From positions 2,424,501 through 2,488,500 of the forward strand of contig NZ_CP097329.1 in assembly GCF_030323025.1 (NCBI RefSeq): a stretch of 64,000 bases of DNA, in the 5' to 3' direction. The notes beneath the pieces were generated by a model, which saw only the letters and a program-made list of their open reading frames with translations, had not been told where the DNA came from and did not search any database. Numbering within the stretch: position 1 is the first letter of the stretch; the number at the start of each line of letters is the position of its first letter. Shown here one piece after another: positions 41,780 to 51,183 of the stretch. The DNA comes from Pseudanabaena mucicola str. Chao 1806 (GTDB taxonomy: Bacteria > Cyanobacteriota > Cyanobacteriia > Pseudanabaenales > Pseudanabaenaceae). The position numbers and the translations under genes were made by a program.

Positions 41780-42505
41780 TTAGGTCTCTAATTTCACTAT
41801 TTCATGGAGGGCGATCGCGGCGGCTTCCTGTTGGGCTGCCTTAATACTTTTGCCCTGTCCCTTGCCCCAACAGCGCTCATCAAACCATACCTCCACAGAA
41901 AACACATTATTATCTGATGGCACATTACGATATTCAGGCAAGCGTTTCCATCGTCCCTGCGTTAATTCCTGTAACGCAACTTTGTAATTACCCAATGCAG
42001 GAATAGCAAGTAACGCTTCTGCAAATTTCTGCATGTGAGGGTCAAGCCATTTACGAATAAAAGCTAAATCTTGGGTATTGATATATAGTGAAGCCATTAA
42101 AGCTTCAAGGGCATCAGCAAGTAGTGATCGCAAAGCCTGCGAATCATTACGAGCAGCATTAGAAACGACAACATATCTTTGTAATTCGTAGCTACTAGCA
42201 ATTTCTGCTAAAGTCTTGTCACTGACTAAATGCGATCGTAAAGCTGCCAAATCTCCTACTGAGCGATCGCTATAACGTTCTTGCAAAAATAAACTCACCG
42301 ATAGGCGCAAAACACTATCACCAACAAACTCTAATTGATCGTTGTTATAACTAGTCGAAAAGCTAGGATGTACTAAAGCGCGATCAATTAATAACCAGTC
42401 AAAACCATAAGGTTTGACCTGTTCTAATTTTGCTTGCTCTAATCCCATTTGTGCTAATAATCGAACTAATTCTCTTTGGCGGCGTGGATCAATGGTGGAT
42501 GACAT
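41780..42505 (-). CDS. rnc: Ribonuclease III
   Basis: 241 residues. Double-strand-specific endoribonuclease of rRNA and mRNA processing. The signature NDQLEFVGDSVLRL (about 55-68) and the second acidic site LLADALEALMASLYI (metal ligands) are intact; the double-stranded-RNA-binding domain is at the C-terminus (NYKVALQELTQGRWKRLPEY ... GKGQGKSIKAAQQEAAAIAL). ATG 42505 (MSSTIDPRRQ) is taken because longer in-frame starts run into the divergent lipoprotein gene and add non-family sequence. Confidence 0.93.
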   Translation of the reverse strand: MSSTIDPRRQRELVRLLAQMGLEQAKLEQVKPYGFDWLLIDRALVHPSFSTSYNNDQLEFVGDSVLRLSVSLFLQERYSDRSVGDLAALRSHLVSDKTLAEIASSYELQRYVVVSNAARNDSQALRSLLADALEALMASLYINTQDLAFIRKWLDPHMQKFAEALLAIPALGNYKVALQELTQGRWKRLPEYRNVPSDNNVFSVEVWFDERCWGKGQGKSIKAAQQEAAAIALHEIVKLET

Positions 42506-42563
42506 GAGCTTTGCAGATACAATTACAGCAACTTTATCAACATGATCGTAGTTCATCGTAACC

Positions 42564-43895
42564 ATGACTAAAAGGTTTTTCTCACTACTTTGTATGGCTT
42601 TACTCGCTACCGTAACCATGATTTGGATCGTAGCTTGTCAACCTAGCACCCCACCAACTACAAATAGTAACAGTCCAACTACAAACTCCACAGCTACAAC
42701 TACCACAGGTTCAGGAGGTGGAGGCGTAAAAGATAATCTTCGTTTAGGAGCATTATTACCTGCTACAGGTGATCTCTCATCGATTGGTGCACCGATGATC
42801 AAATCCATCGATTTCCTTGTTGACACAGTGAATAAATGCGGTGGTGTTCTTGGTAAGCCGATCACTTATTTTAAAGAAGATGATCGCACTGATCCCCCCG
42901 CAGGTGCAGAGGCAACCACCAAATTAGTGAAGGTTGATAATGTTGGTGGTATCGTTGGCGCGTTTGCCAGCAGTGTATCGACCGCAGCCTTGGCGATCGC
43001 TGTCCCCAATAAAGTCGTAATGGTTTCTCCTGGCAGCACCAGCCCTGTATTTACCGAACGCGCCAAGAAAGGCGAATTTAATAGTTATTGGTATCGCACT
43101 GCCCCACCCGACACCTACCAAGCGGTCGCCCTTGCCAATCTTGCTTACAAAAAAGGTGCACGCAAAGTTGCTACTCTCGTAATCAACAATGACTATGGCG
43201 TGGGTTTTGAGAAGTCCTTCGTGGCAGCATTTGAAAAGATCGGCGGCACAATTGTGAATAAAAACAAGCCCACTCGCTACGATCCCAAAGCAACTACCTT
43301 TGAGGCGGAAGCGAAGTCAGCCTTTGGTAGCAAACCAGATGCAGTTGCAGCAATTCTCTATCCCGATTCTGGTGGTGCAGTAATTAAGGCAGCTTTTGAG
43401 CAAGGTTTAACAAAAGATGTCAAAATCTTGTTGACAGATGGTGTAAAAACTGAAGACTTTCCTAAACTGATCGGCAATACTCCTGAAGGTAAACTCATCC
43501 TCGCAGGTGCACTTGGTACTGTACCTGGAGCTGACGGCAAGTCCCTTGACAACTTTACTAAAGCCTTCAAGGAAAAGACTGGTCAAGAACTCGGCGCATT
43601 TGTTCCCCATTCCTATGATGCGGCGGCTTTAATTGCGATCGCGGCTGAGGCGGCTAAGGATGGCACTGGTGAAGGTATTAAGAGTAAAATCCGTGAAGTG
43701 GCTAATGCTCCTGGTCAGGAAGTTAGTGATGTTTGCGAAGCCATCAAGCTAGTCAAAGATGGCAAAGACATTGACTATCAAGGTGCAAGTGGCAATGTCG
43801 ATCTCGATGAATATGGCGATGTCAAAGGTAGTTATGACGTATGGGAAGTGCAACCCGACGGCAAAATTAAAGTAATTGATCGCGTTTCCCCATAA
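42564..43895 (+). CDS. Branched-chain amino-acid-type ABC transporter substrate-binding lipoprotein
   Basis: 443 residues. Lipoprotein signal with lipobox WIVAC (C25), then a Thr/Ser/Asn-rich linker to about residue 55. The rest is a type I periplasmic-binding fold: LRLGALLPATGDLSSIGAPM, INKCGGVLGKPI-like DTVNKCGGVLGKPITYFKEDD, and LVINNDYGVGFEKSF. This resembles LivJ/NatB amino-acid and urea receptors. No permease or ATPase genes accompany it. Divergent from rnc across a 58-bp gap. Confidence 0.88.
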   Translation: MTKRFFSLLCMALLATVTMIWIVACQPSTPPTTNSNSPTTNSTATTTTGSGGGGVKDNLRLGALLPATGDLSSIGAPMIKSIDFLVDTVNKCGGVLGKPITYFKEDDRTDPPAGAEATTKLVKVDNVGGIVGAFASSVSTAALAIAVPNKVVMVSPGSTSPVFTERAKKGEFNSYWYRTAPPDTYQAVALANLAYKKGARKVATLVINNDYGVGFEKSFVAAFEKIGGTIVNKNKPTRYDPKATTFEAEAKSAFGSKPDAVAAILYPDSGGAVIKAAFEQGLTKDVKILLTDGVKTEDFPKLIGNTPEGKLILAGALGTVPGADGKSLDNFTKAFKEKTGQELGAFVPHSYDAAALIAIAAEAAKDGTGEGIKSKIREVANAPGQEVSDVCEAIKLVKDGKDIDYQGASGNVDLDEYGDVKGSYDVWEVQPDGKIKVIDRVSP

Positions 43896-44000: not shown

Positions 44001-44390
44001 ATGGCGATCGAACTCAAAGCTGCTCCTCCGCAAGAAGTTTCCATCTACATGCCCTATTACCGAGAGCCCAATAAGCGCCAAGCTCTCCCCTATGCGATTT
44101 CTTTATATAGACAGGGTGAAATTACAGGCGAACGTCATGTTGAGGGTAGCACTGCAATTTCTTTTATGGCTGTGTGGCGAGTGGCAAACCTACCCGCAGA
44201 TATCACAATATGTCGAGTTACCTTTGAAGGTGATGCTGACATGAGCTATGAAATAATCTTAGAAAATACAGAATTTGTTGGCTATTTAATTGATGTTGTT
44301 TCTAGTATTAGTGATAAAGGCTATGTTGATTTTCCCCAAATCTTCTATAGCAAGCTGTTTCGGATTAAATTATCTGGAGCTGAAGGCTAA
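44001..44390 (+). CDS. Unrecognised cyanobacterial protein
   Basis: 129 residues, soluble, no signal or membrane segment. Contains IYMPYYREPNKRQALPYAISLYRQG and a predicted beta-rich second half (ICRVTFEGDADMSYEIILENTEFVGYLIDVV). No catalytic motif is apparent. It is the first of a run of same-strand genes (44001-47438) without known families. Start ATG has no clear Shine-Dalgarno sequence. I do not recognise it. Confidence 0.6.
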   Translation: MAIELKAAPPQEVSIYMPYYREPNKRQALPYAISLYRQGEITGERHVEGSTAISFMAVWRVANLPADITICRVTFEGDADMSYEIILENTEFVGYLIDVVSSISDKGYVDFPQIFYSKLFRIKLSGAEG

Positions 44391-44572
44391 TTTATGGAGC
44401 AATTAAATTTTGCCAATAAATTTTGCCAATTTTAAAATAAATGGCAGATCAAAAATTATCAATTAATGTATAATCCTAAGCTCAAATATTGCCAAAAAAA
44501 ACAAATTCAGCTACAGTCCTGATGCAGCTTTTCCAAAGGCAAAATAACAGTCAATTTTAAGGGGACTACATT

Positions 44573-44836
44573 GTGACATATGCCGCCCAACGCCTTGAGC
44601 AACCTGAGCGCCAGCCTGAAACTGTCGCTAAAAAAGTCGATCCAATGATTGTCAGAGCCGCTAAACAAATTTATCGCTATTATGCTGATTCCTATGCTGC
44701 CCAACTGCCGCGACCTATGGGAATTGCTATTAACCGCATAGATATGAGTGGCAAACTCATTTATTCACAATTAATTTTGCTACCACAGGAAAGTTTTGTG
44801 CCGATGGAGTTAATTGAGCTATCTGATTATCATTAA
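44573..44836 (+). CDS. Unrecognised small protein, GTG start
   Basis: 87 residues. GTG 44573 is preceded by AAGGGGAC about 9 bases upstream. N-terminal TYAAQRLEQPERQPETVAKKVDP is polar, the centre IVRAAKQIYRYYADSYAAQ is helical, and the end is beta-like (KLIYSQLILLPQESFVPMELIEL). The first ten bases after the start codon (ACATATGCC run) equal those of the 45028 gene, though the proteins otherwise differ. Function unknown. Confidence 0.55.
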   Translation: MTYAAQRLEQPERQPETVAKKVDPMIVRAAKQIYRYYADSYAAQLPRPMGIAINRIDMSGKLIYSQLILLPQESFVPMELIELSDYH

Positions 44837-45027
44837 AAATTACTTAAAGATTACTTAAATTCGTCCAATTATATTTAATTGGTAGAAAATTAATTTATAA
44901 GGTTTTGACTATAAGTTTTGTATTGTGAGCAATTGCACTACTAGGCGATTAAAAGAAAATTAATCCTATGGCTTAGTCTGTGCAACTGGCTTAAGATTTA
45001 GCTTTCTTCATATATCGGTTATTAATT

Positions 45028-45468
45028 ATGACATATGCCAATTCTTCCGTAACGGTTACAGCAAATGCGAGTACCTCTGTGCGTTTTCAGAGCAAACTTA
45101 AGGATTCAAAAAACTTTGGCGATGCTTTGATGGAAGTGTTCTCAGATTTGGTGAAATTAGAAATTGTAACTTGGGTTGCCCATGAAGGAGATACAACCCA
45201 TACCCCTGGTAATCGTTTAAAAACAGCAATTAATTTGATTGATGGTGACATTGAGAATGAAATTGGTGCAGATTTTTTGCAGGGTTCTCCCTATGCTGAG
45301 CTACGTGAATTTCATGAAACCCAAGTCGAGAAAGGCGCGGAGACGATCGCCAATAACCTCAAGACTTTAGTAGAGATTGGTCATCAGGTGACAGAGCTAT
45401 TGACAAGTGAACATGAGTCTGAGCCTGAGACCAGTTTGAGTAGCGATCGCTTACCTAGCTACGTCTAG
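45028..45468 (+). CDS. Unrecognised protein sharing an N-terminal motif with its neighbour
   Basis: 146 residues, acidic, no membrane segment. Residues ~29-48 (NFGDALMEVFSDLVKLEIVTWV) follow the same pattern as the next gene product (NFRETLKDVLEEITSLEVNTIIV): N-F-x3-L-x2-V-x6-L-E-[IV]-x-T-x-[VI]-V. The rest is predicted helical with a charged, Ser-rich C-terminal tail. Thirty bases separate the two genes, so they are likely one operon and perhaps form a complex through this shared region. No known family recognised. Confidence 0.6.
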   Translation: MTYANSSVTVTANASTSVRFQSKLKDSKNFGDALMEVFSDLVKLEIVTWVAHEGDTTHTPGNRLKTAINLIDGDIENEIGADFLQGSPYAELREFHETQVEKGAETIANNLKTLVEIGHQVTELLTSEHESEPETSLSSDRLPSYV

Positions 45469-45498
45469 TTTGGCGCTTAGGAGCGCTTAGGAATCTGT

Positions 45499-46428
45499 AT
45501 GCAAGTTGATAGGGCGATAAGCAATTCCAAAAATGATGAAGATGCTGTAAATCAGATCAAGTCTAGGCGAGACAAATCTGCGAATAGTTCTGCATCGAAT
45601 TTAGCAGTCAATCAAGACAATAAAGCTGCATCATCCAAAGACGGTAAGGGACAAAGTACATCCCTTAACAACTTTCGTGAAACTCTTAAGGATGTTTTAG
45701 AGGAGATTACTTCCTTAGAAGTCAATACAATAATCGTTGGTAAGATCCCAATGACTAAGTTTGATGCGAAAGATTTTTATCGAGAACTAAATCACAATAT
45801 CAAGTACAAAACTGAAGCAGGGCTACAGGATGTTAAAGAGTCTCTGCTTGAGCGAAGTTCCCAACTAAAGCAAAAGGGTTTTGCCTTACCACAGCAAACA
45901 TCAACTCCTTTGCTGCCTAAGGAAACAGCCATGATTGATAAGTACCGAGCTGAATTAACTCGCTATAATGATGATTTAGAGATTTACAGGGAAGCTGAAC
46001 GGATTTTTCAAGATCACCAGAATACTCTCGATCCCGCCGAAAAAGAAAAATTTGACTTAGAGCAAAGTTGTTTCTCTAATTTAGCTAGACAGTTGATGAA
46101 GTTAAATATTAAAACAGATGCTAATGGTGAAGTAATTGTTGATGCGCCAATGATTCGCTATTTCAGAAAATTGTGGGAATTTGAACAATCGGTGTTAAAT
46201 GGTGATCGCATTTATGCTCAGACAAAGTTTCATCTTGACGGAGATTTAACTAATCGCTTTGTTGAAGACTTATTCACACCCAGCAAGGGCAGGTTCGATC
46301 CCAAAATGACGCAGCTTATTTTTGATTTACATCGCCAAGGTGTAGAAAATGCTCAAAAACAATGGTCAGGGTTGATTGAGACCTGTGTAAATCTCGTAAA
46401 GAGTTTGATGCCATTTCGGGCTAAATAG
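45499..46428 (+). CDS. Unrecognised helical protein with the shared N-terminal motif
   Basis: 309 residues. A basic, Ser/Asn-rich disordered arm (1-50) precedes the motif region (about 54-77), then long charged helices likely to form coiled coils (GLQDVKESLLERSSQLKQKG, YRAELTRYNDDLEIYREAERIFQDHQ) and a C-terminal helical domain. No enzymatic motif, signal or membrane segment. AGGA precedes the start. It overlaps in theme with its upstream partner and sits 59 bp before a membrane protein gene on the same strand. Function unknown. Confidence 0.6.
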   Translation: MQVDRAISNSKNDEDAVNQIKSRRDKSANSSASNLAVNQDNKAASSKDGKGQSTSLNNFRETLKDVLEEITSLEVNTIIVGKIPMTKFDAKDFYRELNHNIKYKTEAGLQDVKESLLERSSQLKQKGFALPQQTSTPLLPKETAMIDKYRAELTRYNDDLEIYREAERIFQDHQNTLDPAEKEKFDLEQSCFSNLARQLMKLNIKTDANGEVIVDAPMIRYFRKLWEFEQSVLNGDRIYAQTKFHLDGDLTNRFVEDLFTPSKGRFDPKMTQLIFDLHRQGVENAQKQWSGLIETCVNLVKSLMPFRAK

Positions 46429-46487
46429 GATTGAGTGAACAAGATACGCTCAATCGAAGAAAATCCTATCGATAATGTGGAGTTACG

Positions 46488-47438
46488 GTGGCTGCGCCTG
46501 AGTGGTTGGCTATTGTCCAAGAAGAGATTATTGTGCGTCTTAACCCCGAAGTTTTATCTCAAATTGAGGAGGGGGCTTTAGGGTTTAGTGATCGCCATAA
46601 TCGAGATAGGTATATTATCTATAAACTCAATAATCAGGAATTATTGCAAGTCTTAGCTTCTAGTGTGGGCATGACACCTTCAAGTCAAGGGGCAATTACC
46701 ATTTGGACTTATTACAATGATTTACCTCACAAGCCTAGGAATGAAGGTCAGGAGCAATTAGATCAAGTATTAGATGCAAAGCCATCGCCAATATTAAGGA
46801 CATTAATGAATGTCGATGGTGATTTCAGTCAAAAGGTTTGTCAAGATATTTTGCAGCACCCTCTCAGCGATCGCATTTTACAAGCCCACAGTTTTATCGT
46901 TGGACAAATTTCTCGCCAATTAATTACGGCGATCGAGAATTACGTCGAAGCAAAATTACGCCCCTTTGCGATCGCGATGATCTCAATGACGGCAGTATTT
47001 GCATGGTGTGAACCCATACGTCAACATTTACATTTGCCAGATGTTCTGAGTGATTGTTGGAGCATGATCATCGCGGCTCCGCTTGCAGTTTTAATCATTT
47101 GGTGGCTGATTTCTAAGTTGCCATTTCAATTACCTGATTTGCCTAAGTCGGTGCTAGATATCAGTAACCGACTAGTGATGATTTTAGATAGTCGTGCTCT
47201 CCAAATTGTGGCGCTCATAGTTGTTAACACTTTATTTTCTAGTTGGCTAGCAGTGAAGTTCATCTTGCCGCACAATGCCATACTCAATAGCATCATTCAG
47301 AGCATCCAAAATTTTGCAGAGCCATATTTACCCTTTGCAATCATCAGTTTACGCAAATTAATTGTGAGCGTCCTTGGCAAAATTTTCTTCCGTTATTCTT
47401 TTTTCATAAAATTGGTTTTTGGGCGTTTTCTCAAATAA
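46488..47438 (+). CDS. Unrecognised membrane protein, GTG start
   Basis: 316 residues. Soluble N-terminal half (about 1-160, with VRLNPEVLSQIEEGALGFSDRHNRDR) and a C-terminal half containing three or four hydrophobic segments (FAIAMISMTAVFAW, MIIAAPLAVLIIWWLISKL, IVALIVVNTLFSSWLAV, YLPFAIISLRKLIVSVLGKIFF). GTG 46488 has GGAG 7-8 bases upstream. It ends the run that begins with the two motif-sharing soluble proteins; a hairpin at 47527 lies downstream. A soluble-pair-plus-membrane-protein layout is seen, but no function can be assigned. Confidence 0.6.
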   Translation: MAAPEWLAIVQEEIIVRLNPEVLSQIEEGALGFSDRHNRDRYIIYKLNNQELLQVLASSVGMTPSSQGAITIWTYYNDLPHKPRNEGQEQLDQVLDAKPSPILRTLMNVDGDFSQKVCQDILQHPLSDRILQAHSFIVGQISRQLITAIENYVEAKLRPFAIAMISMTAVFAWCEPIRQHLHLPDVLSDCWSMIIAAPLAVLIIWWLISKLPFQLPDLPKSVLDISNRLVMILDSRALQIVALIVVNTLFSSWLAVKFILPHNAILNSIIQSIQNFAEPYLPFAIISLRKLIVSVLGKIFFRYSFFIKLVFGRFLK

Positions 47439-47564: not shown

Positions 47565-47682
47565 CCCTAAATCGATAAAACAAGTTGAGATTTGGCGATC
47601 GCAAGCTGCGGCAACTCTTGCCTTTCTGGTTCCCAAAATTACTGGTAATGCTCCAACGGCGAATGATGGACTAGTCGATGAT

Positions 47683-48825
47683 TTGGTGAGAGCGCTGAAT
47701 AATTTACCAGCTCGTCCCGAAGCACGACAGCCCTATGCAGGGATTTTTCCTGCGGCAGATCTTTTGACTTGGCGCAATCGAGCCGCAGTGACTCTGCAAA
47801 CTTTAGTGCCAAAAATTCAGAATGTTGAAGGTAGCATCTATGATGGCGCGATCGATGACTTAATTCGGTTTATTCGTCAATTACCACCACGTCCTACAGG
47901 TCGTGCCCCCTACTTAGGACTATTCGCACCCGCCGACCTTGCCACATGGCGCAAGCAAGCATCCCAAACATTAGTTGCCGCGATCGCCAAGATTACCGAT
48001 CCCAAGTACATTGATGCTGATAATAAAATTGATGACTTAGTGCGAGCTATGAGTGGATTGCCACTGCGACCAGTTCTTCGCAAACCCTATGAAGGTCTTT
48101 ATCCTGCGCCGAATCTAGTGGCATCTCGTCAACTAGTTGCCAAGCGTTTACAACAATTAATTGATGTTCTCAAAGATGATTTCAATCCCAAAGATGTCCT
48201 AGTCGATAGTACGATTCGAGCTTTAAATAATTTGCCCCCACGCCCGACTGATCAAGAACCCTACGCAGGTTTATATCCTAAAGCCGAAGTTAATAGTCCT
48301 GTAATTACCCTAGATCAATTAACCGCGATCGCTCCCTATTCCGATCCCACGCGTCTGACTCAATTGCTACCAAATCTAAATACAACCATGCAGCGCTATG
48401 GCATCACCACTCCATTACGCAAGGCACATTTCATTGCCCAGATCGCCCATGAAAGTGATGCCTTTAACACTAACGAAGAATATGCCTCTGGTGCAGACTA
48501 TGAAGGACGCAGAGATCTTGGAAATACCAAAGCAGGTGATGGTGTGAGATTTAAAGGTCGTGGCTTAATTCATGTGACGGGGCGTTCTAACTATGCTGCC
48601 TGTGGTCAAGCGCTTGGTGTGGACTTGATCAATAATCCTCAACGTTTAGCCAATTTTGACCTCGCTTGTTTTAGTGCGGGGTGGTATTGGGATACGCGAT
48701 CGCTCAATGACTATGCCGACAATGATGATGTCATCCAAATTACACGCATTATCAATGGTGGGCTTAATGGTTTAGGCGATCGCCAAGCCTATCTTGCCAG
48801 AGCCAAGCAAGTATTCAGGATTTAG
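47683..48825 (+). CDS. Repeat-containing GH19 chitinase/lysozyme-like protein, 5' truncated
   Basis: 380 residues from TTG. The C-terminal ~170 residues are a family GH19 domain (AHFIAQIAHESDAFNTNEEYASG with the catalytic glutamates, GVRFKGRGLIHVTGRSNY, FSAGWYW). Before it stand repeats of about 60 residues reading RALNNLPARPxxRxPYxGxxPAxxLxxxR. The frame is open back to 47530 and already encodes another repeat half (EIWRSQAAATLAFLVPKIT), but there is no ATG, GTG or TTG there. The start shown falls inside a repeat, so the gene has probably lost its real beginning, or uses an ATT/ATA codon. Repeats may bind cell-wall or phage-like structures. Confidence 0.65.
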   Translation: MVRALNNLPARPEARQPYAGIFPAADLLTWRNRAAVTLQTLVPKIQNVEGSIYDGAIDDLIRFIRQLPPRPTGRAPYLGLFAPADLATWRKQASQTLVAAIAKITDPKYIDADNKIDDLVRAMSGLPLRPVLRKPYEGLYPAPNLVASRQLVAKRLQQLIDVLKDDFNPKDVLVDSTIRALNNLPPRPTDQEPYAGLYPKAEVNSPVITLDQLTAIAPYSDPTRLTQLLPNLNTTMQRYGITTPLRKAHFIAQIAHESDAFNTNEEYASGADYEGRRDLGNTKAGDGVRFKGRGLIHVTGRSNYAACGQALGVDLINNPQRLANFDLACFSAGWYWDTRSLNDYADNDDVIQITRIINGGLNGLGDRQAYLARAKQVFRI

Positions 48826-50598: not shown

Positions 50599-51183
50599 AT
50601 GAAATCTGAATTCAAGACCAAGCTCATTCAACACATCCTCAACAAAAAAGATTCTGAAAAAGGCTTCACTCTGATTGAACTTCTCGTTGTTATCATCATC
50701 ATCGGTATTCTTGCAGCGATCGCCCTTCCTTCCTTCCTCAACCAAGCAGCTAAAGCTCGTCAATCAGAAGCTAAGACCTATGTTGGGTCTGCAAACCGTA
50801 CTCAGCAAGCTTACTACCTAGAAAAGCAGCAGTTTGCTACAGACCTTCCTAGCTTAGCTCTAGGTATTCCTGCAACTACTGAGAACTACGATTATGCAAC
50901 TACTGGTTCTACCAAAGGTGCAACTGGTACCACTGCCAACTCTCTTAGCCGTGCTATACCTAGAGCTACCAACTTGAAAGCCTATGCTGGTGCTGTTAAT
51001 ATAGCTACTCCAGCAGGTAGCAACGAAGCTACAACATTGTCAGCTGTCGCTGAAGGCACTCTAGCTCCAATTAATGGCGGTAATGCTGGTACTAACACTG
51101 GAGTAACGCAATATTTTAATCTTTCAACTAACGCTGCTCCAACAGTTGTTAGTGGTAACACTGGTTTCGTTGCTGTTAACTAG
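50599..51183 (+). CDS. pilA: Type IV major pilin-like protein (PilA)
   Basis: 194 residues. Prepilin leader of 22 residues ending KG, cleaved before FTLIELLVVIIIIGILAAIALP; the glutamate at +5 of the mature protein (E27) is present. A small soluble head follows, rich in Thr, Ala and Asn (ATTGSTKGATGTTANSLS), with no obvious C-terminal disulfide pair. Pilins drive twitching motility and DNA uptake. The many Ser/Thr residues are possible glycosylation sites, and the next gene encodes GT41-type transferases. A terminator follows at 51272. Confidence 0.93.
   Translation: MKSEFKTKLIQHILNKKDSEKGFTLIELLVVIIIIGILAAIALPSFLNQAAKARQSEAKTYVGSANRTQQAYYLEKQQFATDLPSLALGIPATTENYDYATTGSTKGATGTTANSLSRAIPRATNLKAYAGAVNIATPAGSNEATTLSAVAEGTLAPINGGNAGTNTGVTQYFNLSTNAAPTVVSGNTGFVAVN

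What the first reader, a model, noticed from the sequence alone, without database searches (positions are those of the whole stretch)
44001..47438. Uncharacterised accessory cluster with two motif-sharing soluble proteins and a membrane protein
Five same-strand genes have no family that I recognise. Two neighbours (45028 and 45499) share NFxxxLxxVxxxxxxLE[IV]xTx[VI]V, which suggests duplication and a heteromeric complex; a third gene encodes a protein with a soluble sensor-like half and several membrane helices. Small soluble pair plus membrane effector is a layout found in several defence and stress systems, but nothing here proves such a role.
Basis: partly seen in the sequence, partly recalled or inferred. 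Interest (0 to 1): 0.65.

Follow-up and report, generated by a model that had tools for sequence, protein, structure and literature searches.

The report
Unnamed three-gene cyanobacterial paralogue operon
Three neighbouring genes in this Pseudanabaena-like cyanobacterium encode two soluble proteins and one membrane protein that share one undescribed small domain; they keep the same order, as a unit, in many distant cyanobacteria, and probably make a membrane-tethered complex whose job is still unknown.

Summary
Of the five genes, 44001 is EbsA, a known type IV pilus protein, and 44573 is a small phylum-wide cyanobacterial protein; both stay in place when the rest is missing. The real unit is 45028 (A), 45499 (B) and 46488 (C).
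All three carry one undescribed domain, helix-strand-strand-strand-long helix, with a signature Thr (strand 1), Thr/Ser (strand 2), Gly of 'DGD' (turn), His (long helix). B has about 145 helical residues inserted in it; C adds 2-4 membrane helices. Predicted folds of A and B have the same topology, and profile comparisons link all three above every shuffled control.
No match in Pfam, NCBIfam, PHROGs, PADLOC or PDB (sequence or fold). A-B-C is complete, same order and strand, in 70 of 80 named cyanobacterial loci with different flanks. B and C were found in the same 26 of 292 genomes. One Pseudanabaena genome lacks exactly A-B-C. Many lineages add a second A copy with a 110-1800-residue acidic, probably disordered tail.
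Best reading: a membrane-anchored cytoplasmic complex of paralogous subunits, perhaps an adaptor or scaffold. Defence is not supported. Function is untested.

The parts
45028..45468 (+). Gene A, 146 aa: the minimal shared domain. Predicted helix 30-41, strands 43-50, 63-69, 74-79, long helix 91-130
   Evidence: AlphaFold model, mean pLDDT 75.8, pTM 0.60; syntenic in the genus and across cyanobacteria
45241..45249 (+). Codons of the D72-G73-D74 turn in A, between strands 2 and 3
   Evidence: Gly in 90 of 91 A-type sequences
45313..45315 (+). Codon of the invariant His96 in the long helix of A
   Evidence: His in 91/91 A, 56/57 B and 65/67 C sequences
45499..46428 (+). Gene B, 309 aa: same domain split by a helical insertion; first ~51 residues predicted disordered
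   Evidence: AlphaFold model, mean pLDDT 78.6, pTM 0.62: H54-69 E72-79 [helices 90-234] E237-245 E250-254 H268-306
45766..46200 (+). Helical insertion of B (residues 90-234) between strands 1 and 2 of the domain
46237..46245 (+). Codons of D247-G248-D249 in B
46488..47438 (+). Gene C, 316 aa: domain in the N-terminal half, then hydrophobic helices and a short basic C-terminus
   Evidence: hhalign C with B E 5e-6, with A E 6e-4, each above all of 100 shuffles; hydropathy
46815..46823 (+). Codons of D110-G111-D112 in C
   Evidence: Gly in 67/67 C sequences
46962..47390 (+). Region of the predicted membrane helices of C: residues 159-177, 190-208, 238-256, 283-301
   Evidence: Kyte-Doolittle, threshold 1.2; three segments pass threshold 1.6
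44001..44390 (+). EbsA, type IV pilus biogenesis; neighbour, not part of the module
   Evidence: NF045587; kept in the genome that lacks A-B-C
44573..44836 (+). 87-aa conserved cyanobacterial protein, GTG start; neighbour, not part of the module
   Evidence: found in 95 of 244 sampled genomes of the phylum; linked to A-B-C only in Pseudanabaenaceae

Best explanation
A, B and C are an operon of three paralogous subunits that arose by duplication of one small domain (helix-strand-strand-strand-long helix). They most likely assemble through that domain into one complex on the cytoplasmic face of a membrane: C is the anchor (domain inside, two or four membrane helices, basic C-terminus), B is a subunit enlarged by a helical bundle inserted between strands 1 and 2, and A is the minimal soluble subunit. 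In many lineages a second A copy (A') has a long acidic, probably disordered tail that would recruit partners. The complex would act as a membrane-tethered adaptor or scaffold. Shown here: the shared domain, the conserved operon-like order, joint presence and joint loss. Inferred: physical assembly, membrane side, adaptor role. The client process is unknown.
For: Shared domain: predicted A and B folds have the same topology; hhalign A with B minus its insertion E 3e-5 over 99 columns, 0 of 200 shuffles as good; B with C E 5e-6 and A with C E 6e-4, 0 of 100 shuffles each; four shared positions: Thr 91/91 A, 57/57 B, Thr or Ser 58/67 C; second Thr/Ser 91/91, 56/57, 67/67; Gly 90/91, 55/57, 67/67; His 91/91, 56/57, 65/67. 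Unit: order A(-A')-B-C, one strand, in 70 of 80 named loci and never reversed; flanks differ: ebsA in Pseudanabaena, ackA in Nostoc, Maf and PsbP-like in many others (the last three names from my reading of the sequences). B and C in the same 26 of 292 genomes, all of which also have A. Exact absence of A-B-C between intact neighbours in one Pseudanabaena genome. Genes 30 and 59 bases apart in the window, overlapping in some others. Purifying selection, dN/dS 0.06-0.25. Membrane helices in C and none in A or B; A' tails 17-38% D+E against 1-8% K+R.
Against: No physical interaction was tested, and no fusion of A, B or C was seen among the 80 named loci. Both models are only moderately confident (pTM about 0.6). 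The A-C and B-C alignments cover about 30-50 residues, C itself was not modelled, and with the unmodified profiles A-B alone is weak (E 0.009). A few genomes have A and A' but no B or C, and two loci of a sister lineage have A and B without C. Topology of C rests on hydropathy and loop charges. Co-transcription is not shown. Nothing identifies a client.
Confidence: 0.6

Rival explanations
1. Ligand-sensing membrane module: the conserved Thr, Thr/Ser, Gly, His positions form a binding site for a small molecule or metal in each subunit, and C passes the signal to the membrane.
For: Polar positions conserved in all three paralogues, His and Thr almost without exception; C has a cytoplasm-like domain joined to membrane helices.
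Against: The two Asp of 'DGD' vary freely in A' and in C, so there is no strict acidic site; no similarity to any known ligand-binding fold. The same residues could simply be structural.
Confidence: 0.15
2. Photosystem or thylakoid-biogenesis factor: in many lineages the operon follows a PsbP-like lipoprotein gene and Maf, and the complex sits on the thylakoid membrane.
For: The PsbP-like, Maf, A, A', B, C order recurs in distant lineages; all confirmed hits are in cyanobacteria.
Against: The context is absent in Pseudanabaena and Nostoc; many photosynthetic cyanobacteria lack the genes, so it cannot be a general factor. The link may only be a shared insertion place.
Confidence: 0.15
3. Type IV pilus accessory module working with EbsA.
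For: Directly downstream of ebsA in nearly all Pseudanabaena loci; a type IV pilin gene lies at 50599.
Against: No EbsA relative near A-B-C in any of the 60 loci outside Pseudanabaenaceae; ebsA stays when A-B-C is gone.
Confidence: 0.05
4. Anti-phage defence or toxin-antitoxin system with C as membrane effector.
For: Layout of small soluble proteins plus a membrane protein; patchy across the phylum.
Against: No PADLOC or PHROG hit at a meaningful level; no relative confirmed in viral contigs; nearly fixed in the genus at one locus; purifying selection; all three genes are paralogues, unlike the usual sensor-effector or toxin-antitoxin pair.
Confidence: 0.04

Closest known systems
EbsA (NF045587), cyanobacterial type IV pilus biogenesis protein
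   Same: Gene 44001 is a member and lies two genes upstream of A in Pseudanabaena
   Different: Not related to A, B or C in sequence, and unlinked to them elsewhere
Undescribed conserved cyanobacterial gene clusters in general
   Same: Fixed gene order, cyanobacteria only, no characterised member found
   Different: Here all three genes are paralogues of one domain, and one carries membrane helices
Membrane-anchored paralogue complexes as a general kind (an analogy from general knowledge, not a homologue)
   Same: Soluble and membrane-anchored copies of one domain in a single gene cluster
   Different: No sequence or fold similarity to any such complex was found in the libraries searched

Membership tests
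EbsA (44001 only) | NF045587 score above the curated cut-off | tested here: met
   159.8 bits against 33, residues 5-122
Known protein family for A, B or C | Hit above cut-off in Pfam, NCBIfam, PHROGs or PADLOC | tested here: not met
   Window proteins and ten distant relatives in Pfam and NCBIfam: none
Known fold | Significant PDB match by sequence or structure | tested here: not met
   Profiles of A, B, C: best E 0.33; Foldseek against PDB: no match at E <= 0.001 for A or B; viral library likewise for A. C was not modelled
One paralogous domain family (A, B, C) | Common topology and profile similarity above shuffled controls | tested here: met
   topology compared for A and B only
Type IV pilus machinery | Conserved linkage to pilus genes | tested here: not met
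   Linkage to ebsA only in Pseudanabaenaceae
Anti-phage defence system | Match to known defence proteins, or association with viral DNA | tested here: not met
   PADLOC none; viral contigs none confirmed
Anti-phage defence system | Protection against phage | not testable with these tools
   needs a bench assay
Membrane-anchored heteromeric complex | Physical association of A, B and C | not testable with these tools

The most novel reading that the evidence does not exclude
An undescribed cyanobacterial membrane-tethered complex built from three or four copies of a so far undescribed fold, in which A' carries a very long acidic disordered tail (up to ~1800 residues) that recruits client proteins to the membrane.
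Probability: 0.35. Interest if true: 0.7.

Novelty: categorically new. Interest (0 to 1): 0.55.

Why it matters
The domain and the operon are missing from Pfam, NCBIfam, PHROGs, PADLOC and PDB, yet occur with the same gene order in cyanobacteria as distant as Pseudanabaena, Nostoc, Moorena, Spirulina, Prochloron and Xenococcaceae. That marks a cellular function for which no study was found here, and it gives a clear handle: three linked genes in culturable strains, with a natural deletion genome as comparison. 'Categorically new' refers to family and fold; the general kind of machine may turn out to be familiar once a function is known.

Tried and rejected
Five-gene operon including ebsA and the 87-aa gene: rejected. 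Defence: not supported. Catalytic 'DGD' site: rejected as strict, because both Asp vary while the Gly and His do not. Weak family hits (phasin E 0.034, DUF4611 E 0.055, phrog_21810 E 0.022) treated as chance. First profile comparisons on the narrow genus alignments were inconclusive; wider alignments and removal of B's insertion settled it. Alignment A4 was too diverse for the contig scan and was replaced by A7. Literature: guessed Anabaena locus tags gave nothing; searches on Maf/PsbP neighbours and on acidic-tailed cyanobacterial proteins gave nothing on these genes; the EbsA paper PMC8092324 was searched for genome context only. Fold searches for A and B gave nothing usable. Promoter and terminator scan: promoter-like sites no more than in shuffles, 4 terminator-like against 2.8 expected, so transcription as one unit is not shown.

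Full report
What is there. The window lies in a Pseudanabaena-like cyanobacterium: it is G000:C1:2424501-2488500, and the A protein is identical to that of a Pseudanabaena MAG locus, L155. The five ORFs exist on the + strand. The first, 44001-44390, is EbsA, a known type IV pilus biogenesis protein (NF045587, E 2.9e-47), so 'five genes with no family' is wrong by one. The other four have no hit at cut-off in Pfam, NCBIfam, PHROGs or PADLOC.

The boundaries of the unit. In nearly every Pseudanabaena genome searched the order is ebsA, 87-aa gene, A (45028), B (45499), C (46488). One genome of the genus, G024, 99% complete, has the periplasmic binding protein, ebsA, the 87-aa gene, the GH19-type gene and the small ATPase gene in the same order, with 44 bases where A-B-C should be (L190). 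No relative of A, B or C was found elsewhere in it. So A-B-C comes or goes as a block, and ebsA and the 87-aa gene are not part of it. The 87-aa protein occurs across the phylum (95 of 244 genomes) and is linked to A-B-C only in Pseudanabaenaceae.

One domain, three genes. Predicted B is helix 54-69, strand 72-79, a helical insertion 90-234, strands 237-245 and 250-254, and a 39-residue helix 268-306 (pLDDT 78.6, pTM 0.62): the same order with an insertion between strands 1 and 2. With the insertion taken out, the profile of B aligns with that of A over 99 columns at E 3e-5, score 33.9 against at most 20.8 in 200 shuffles. C aligns with B at E 5e-6 and with A at E 6e-4 around the 'DGD' turn and the following helix, again above 100 of 100 shuffles. 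Four positions run through all three: Thr in strand 1, Thr or Ser in strand 2, Gly in the turn, His in the long helix. The two Asp of 'DGD' are common but replaceable, so the turn looks structural and a strict acidic site is unlikely.

Relatives. One scan of 84,980 species genomes gave 80 loci, every one of them titled as a cyanobacterium. With six-frame profile searches, 70 of 80 hold A, B and C in that order, 24 of them with two A copies; no locus has mixed strands or another order. Several of the incomplete loci run into contig ends, but L164 and L167 seem truly to lack C, and some lineages keep A and A' without B or C. Flanks differ by lineage: ebsA in Pseudanabaena, and by my reading of the sequences acetate kinase in Nostoc and Anabaena, PsbP-like and Maf in Symploca, Moorena, Spirulina and Xenococcaceae. 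Among 292 genomes of the phylum, B and C were found in the same 26, all of which also have A; the C matches in two of these, G148 and G160, contain stop codons and may be chance or decayed. No relative was confirmed in viral contigs.

The second A copy. In many lineages A' carries the A domain and then roughly 110 to 1800 further residues. In the named loci these tails hold 17-38% Asp+Glu and 1-8% Lys+Arg. That composition suggests disorder and recruitment of basic partners; this is inference.

C and the membrane. Window C has four hydrophobic stretches at a loose threshold and three at a strict one; shorter relatives have two. Only 8 of 67 have a hydrophobic stretch starting before residue 60, so most have no signal-peptide-like start, and the C-terminus is basic. 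The simplest topology is domain and C-terminus both in the cytoplasm.

How it most likely works. Three paralogous subunits, one membrane-bound, with fixed order, joint presence and joint loss, most simply form one complex on the cytoplasmic side of a membrane, C as anchor, B with an added helical bundle, A and A' as soluble members, A' as recruiter. My confidence by step: shared domain about 0.93, functional unit about 0.9, physical complex about 0.6, adaptor role about 0.4. What it serves is unknown. Purifying selection (dN/dS 0.06-0.13 in A, about 0.10 in B, 0.21-0.25 in C) shows the genes matter in this genus.

Compared with what is known. No family, profile or fold in the libraries searched covers A, B or C. 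Defence, pilus and ligand-site readings were considered and rank below (see rivals). The domain family is therefore new to those libraries; the general kind of machine may not be.

Noticed in passing
window 47575-47577: The GH19-type gene (listed as 47683-48825) has ATA where two near relatives (L155, L003) and two more distant ones (L160, L190) have an ATG start, so the window strain seems to have lost that start codon.
   Followed up: partly
window 47683-48825: Endolysin/chitinase-like C-terminal domain (Glyco_hydro_19, phrog_181) after several copies of an N-terminal repeat with the pattern LNNLPxRPxxRxPYxG, in a chromosomal, not obviously phage, setting.
   Followed up: no
window 41780-42619 and 42564-43895: Two divergent ORFs overlap at their 5' ends by 56 bases: an RNase III-like gene on the minus strand (name from my reading, not searched) and a periplasmic binding protein gene on the plus strand; one start is probably further in.
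   Followed up: no
L078 1832-7627: A' protein of 1931 residues, the longest full A' read here: one A domain followed by a tail of about 1800 residues with no domain found.
   Followed up: partly
L193 and L194 (G034): In this sister genome A and B lie on different contigs; a 206-aa ORF after B may be a diverged C.
   Followed up: no
window 44573-44836: 87-aa protein with a GTG start conserved in every Pseudanabaena copy extracted, found across cyanobacteria and in no Pfam, NCBIfam or PHROG family.
   Followed up: partly
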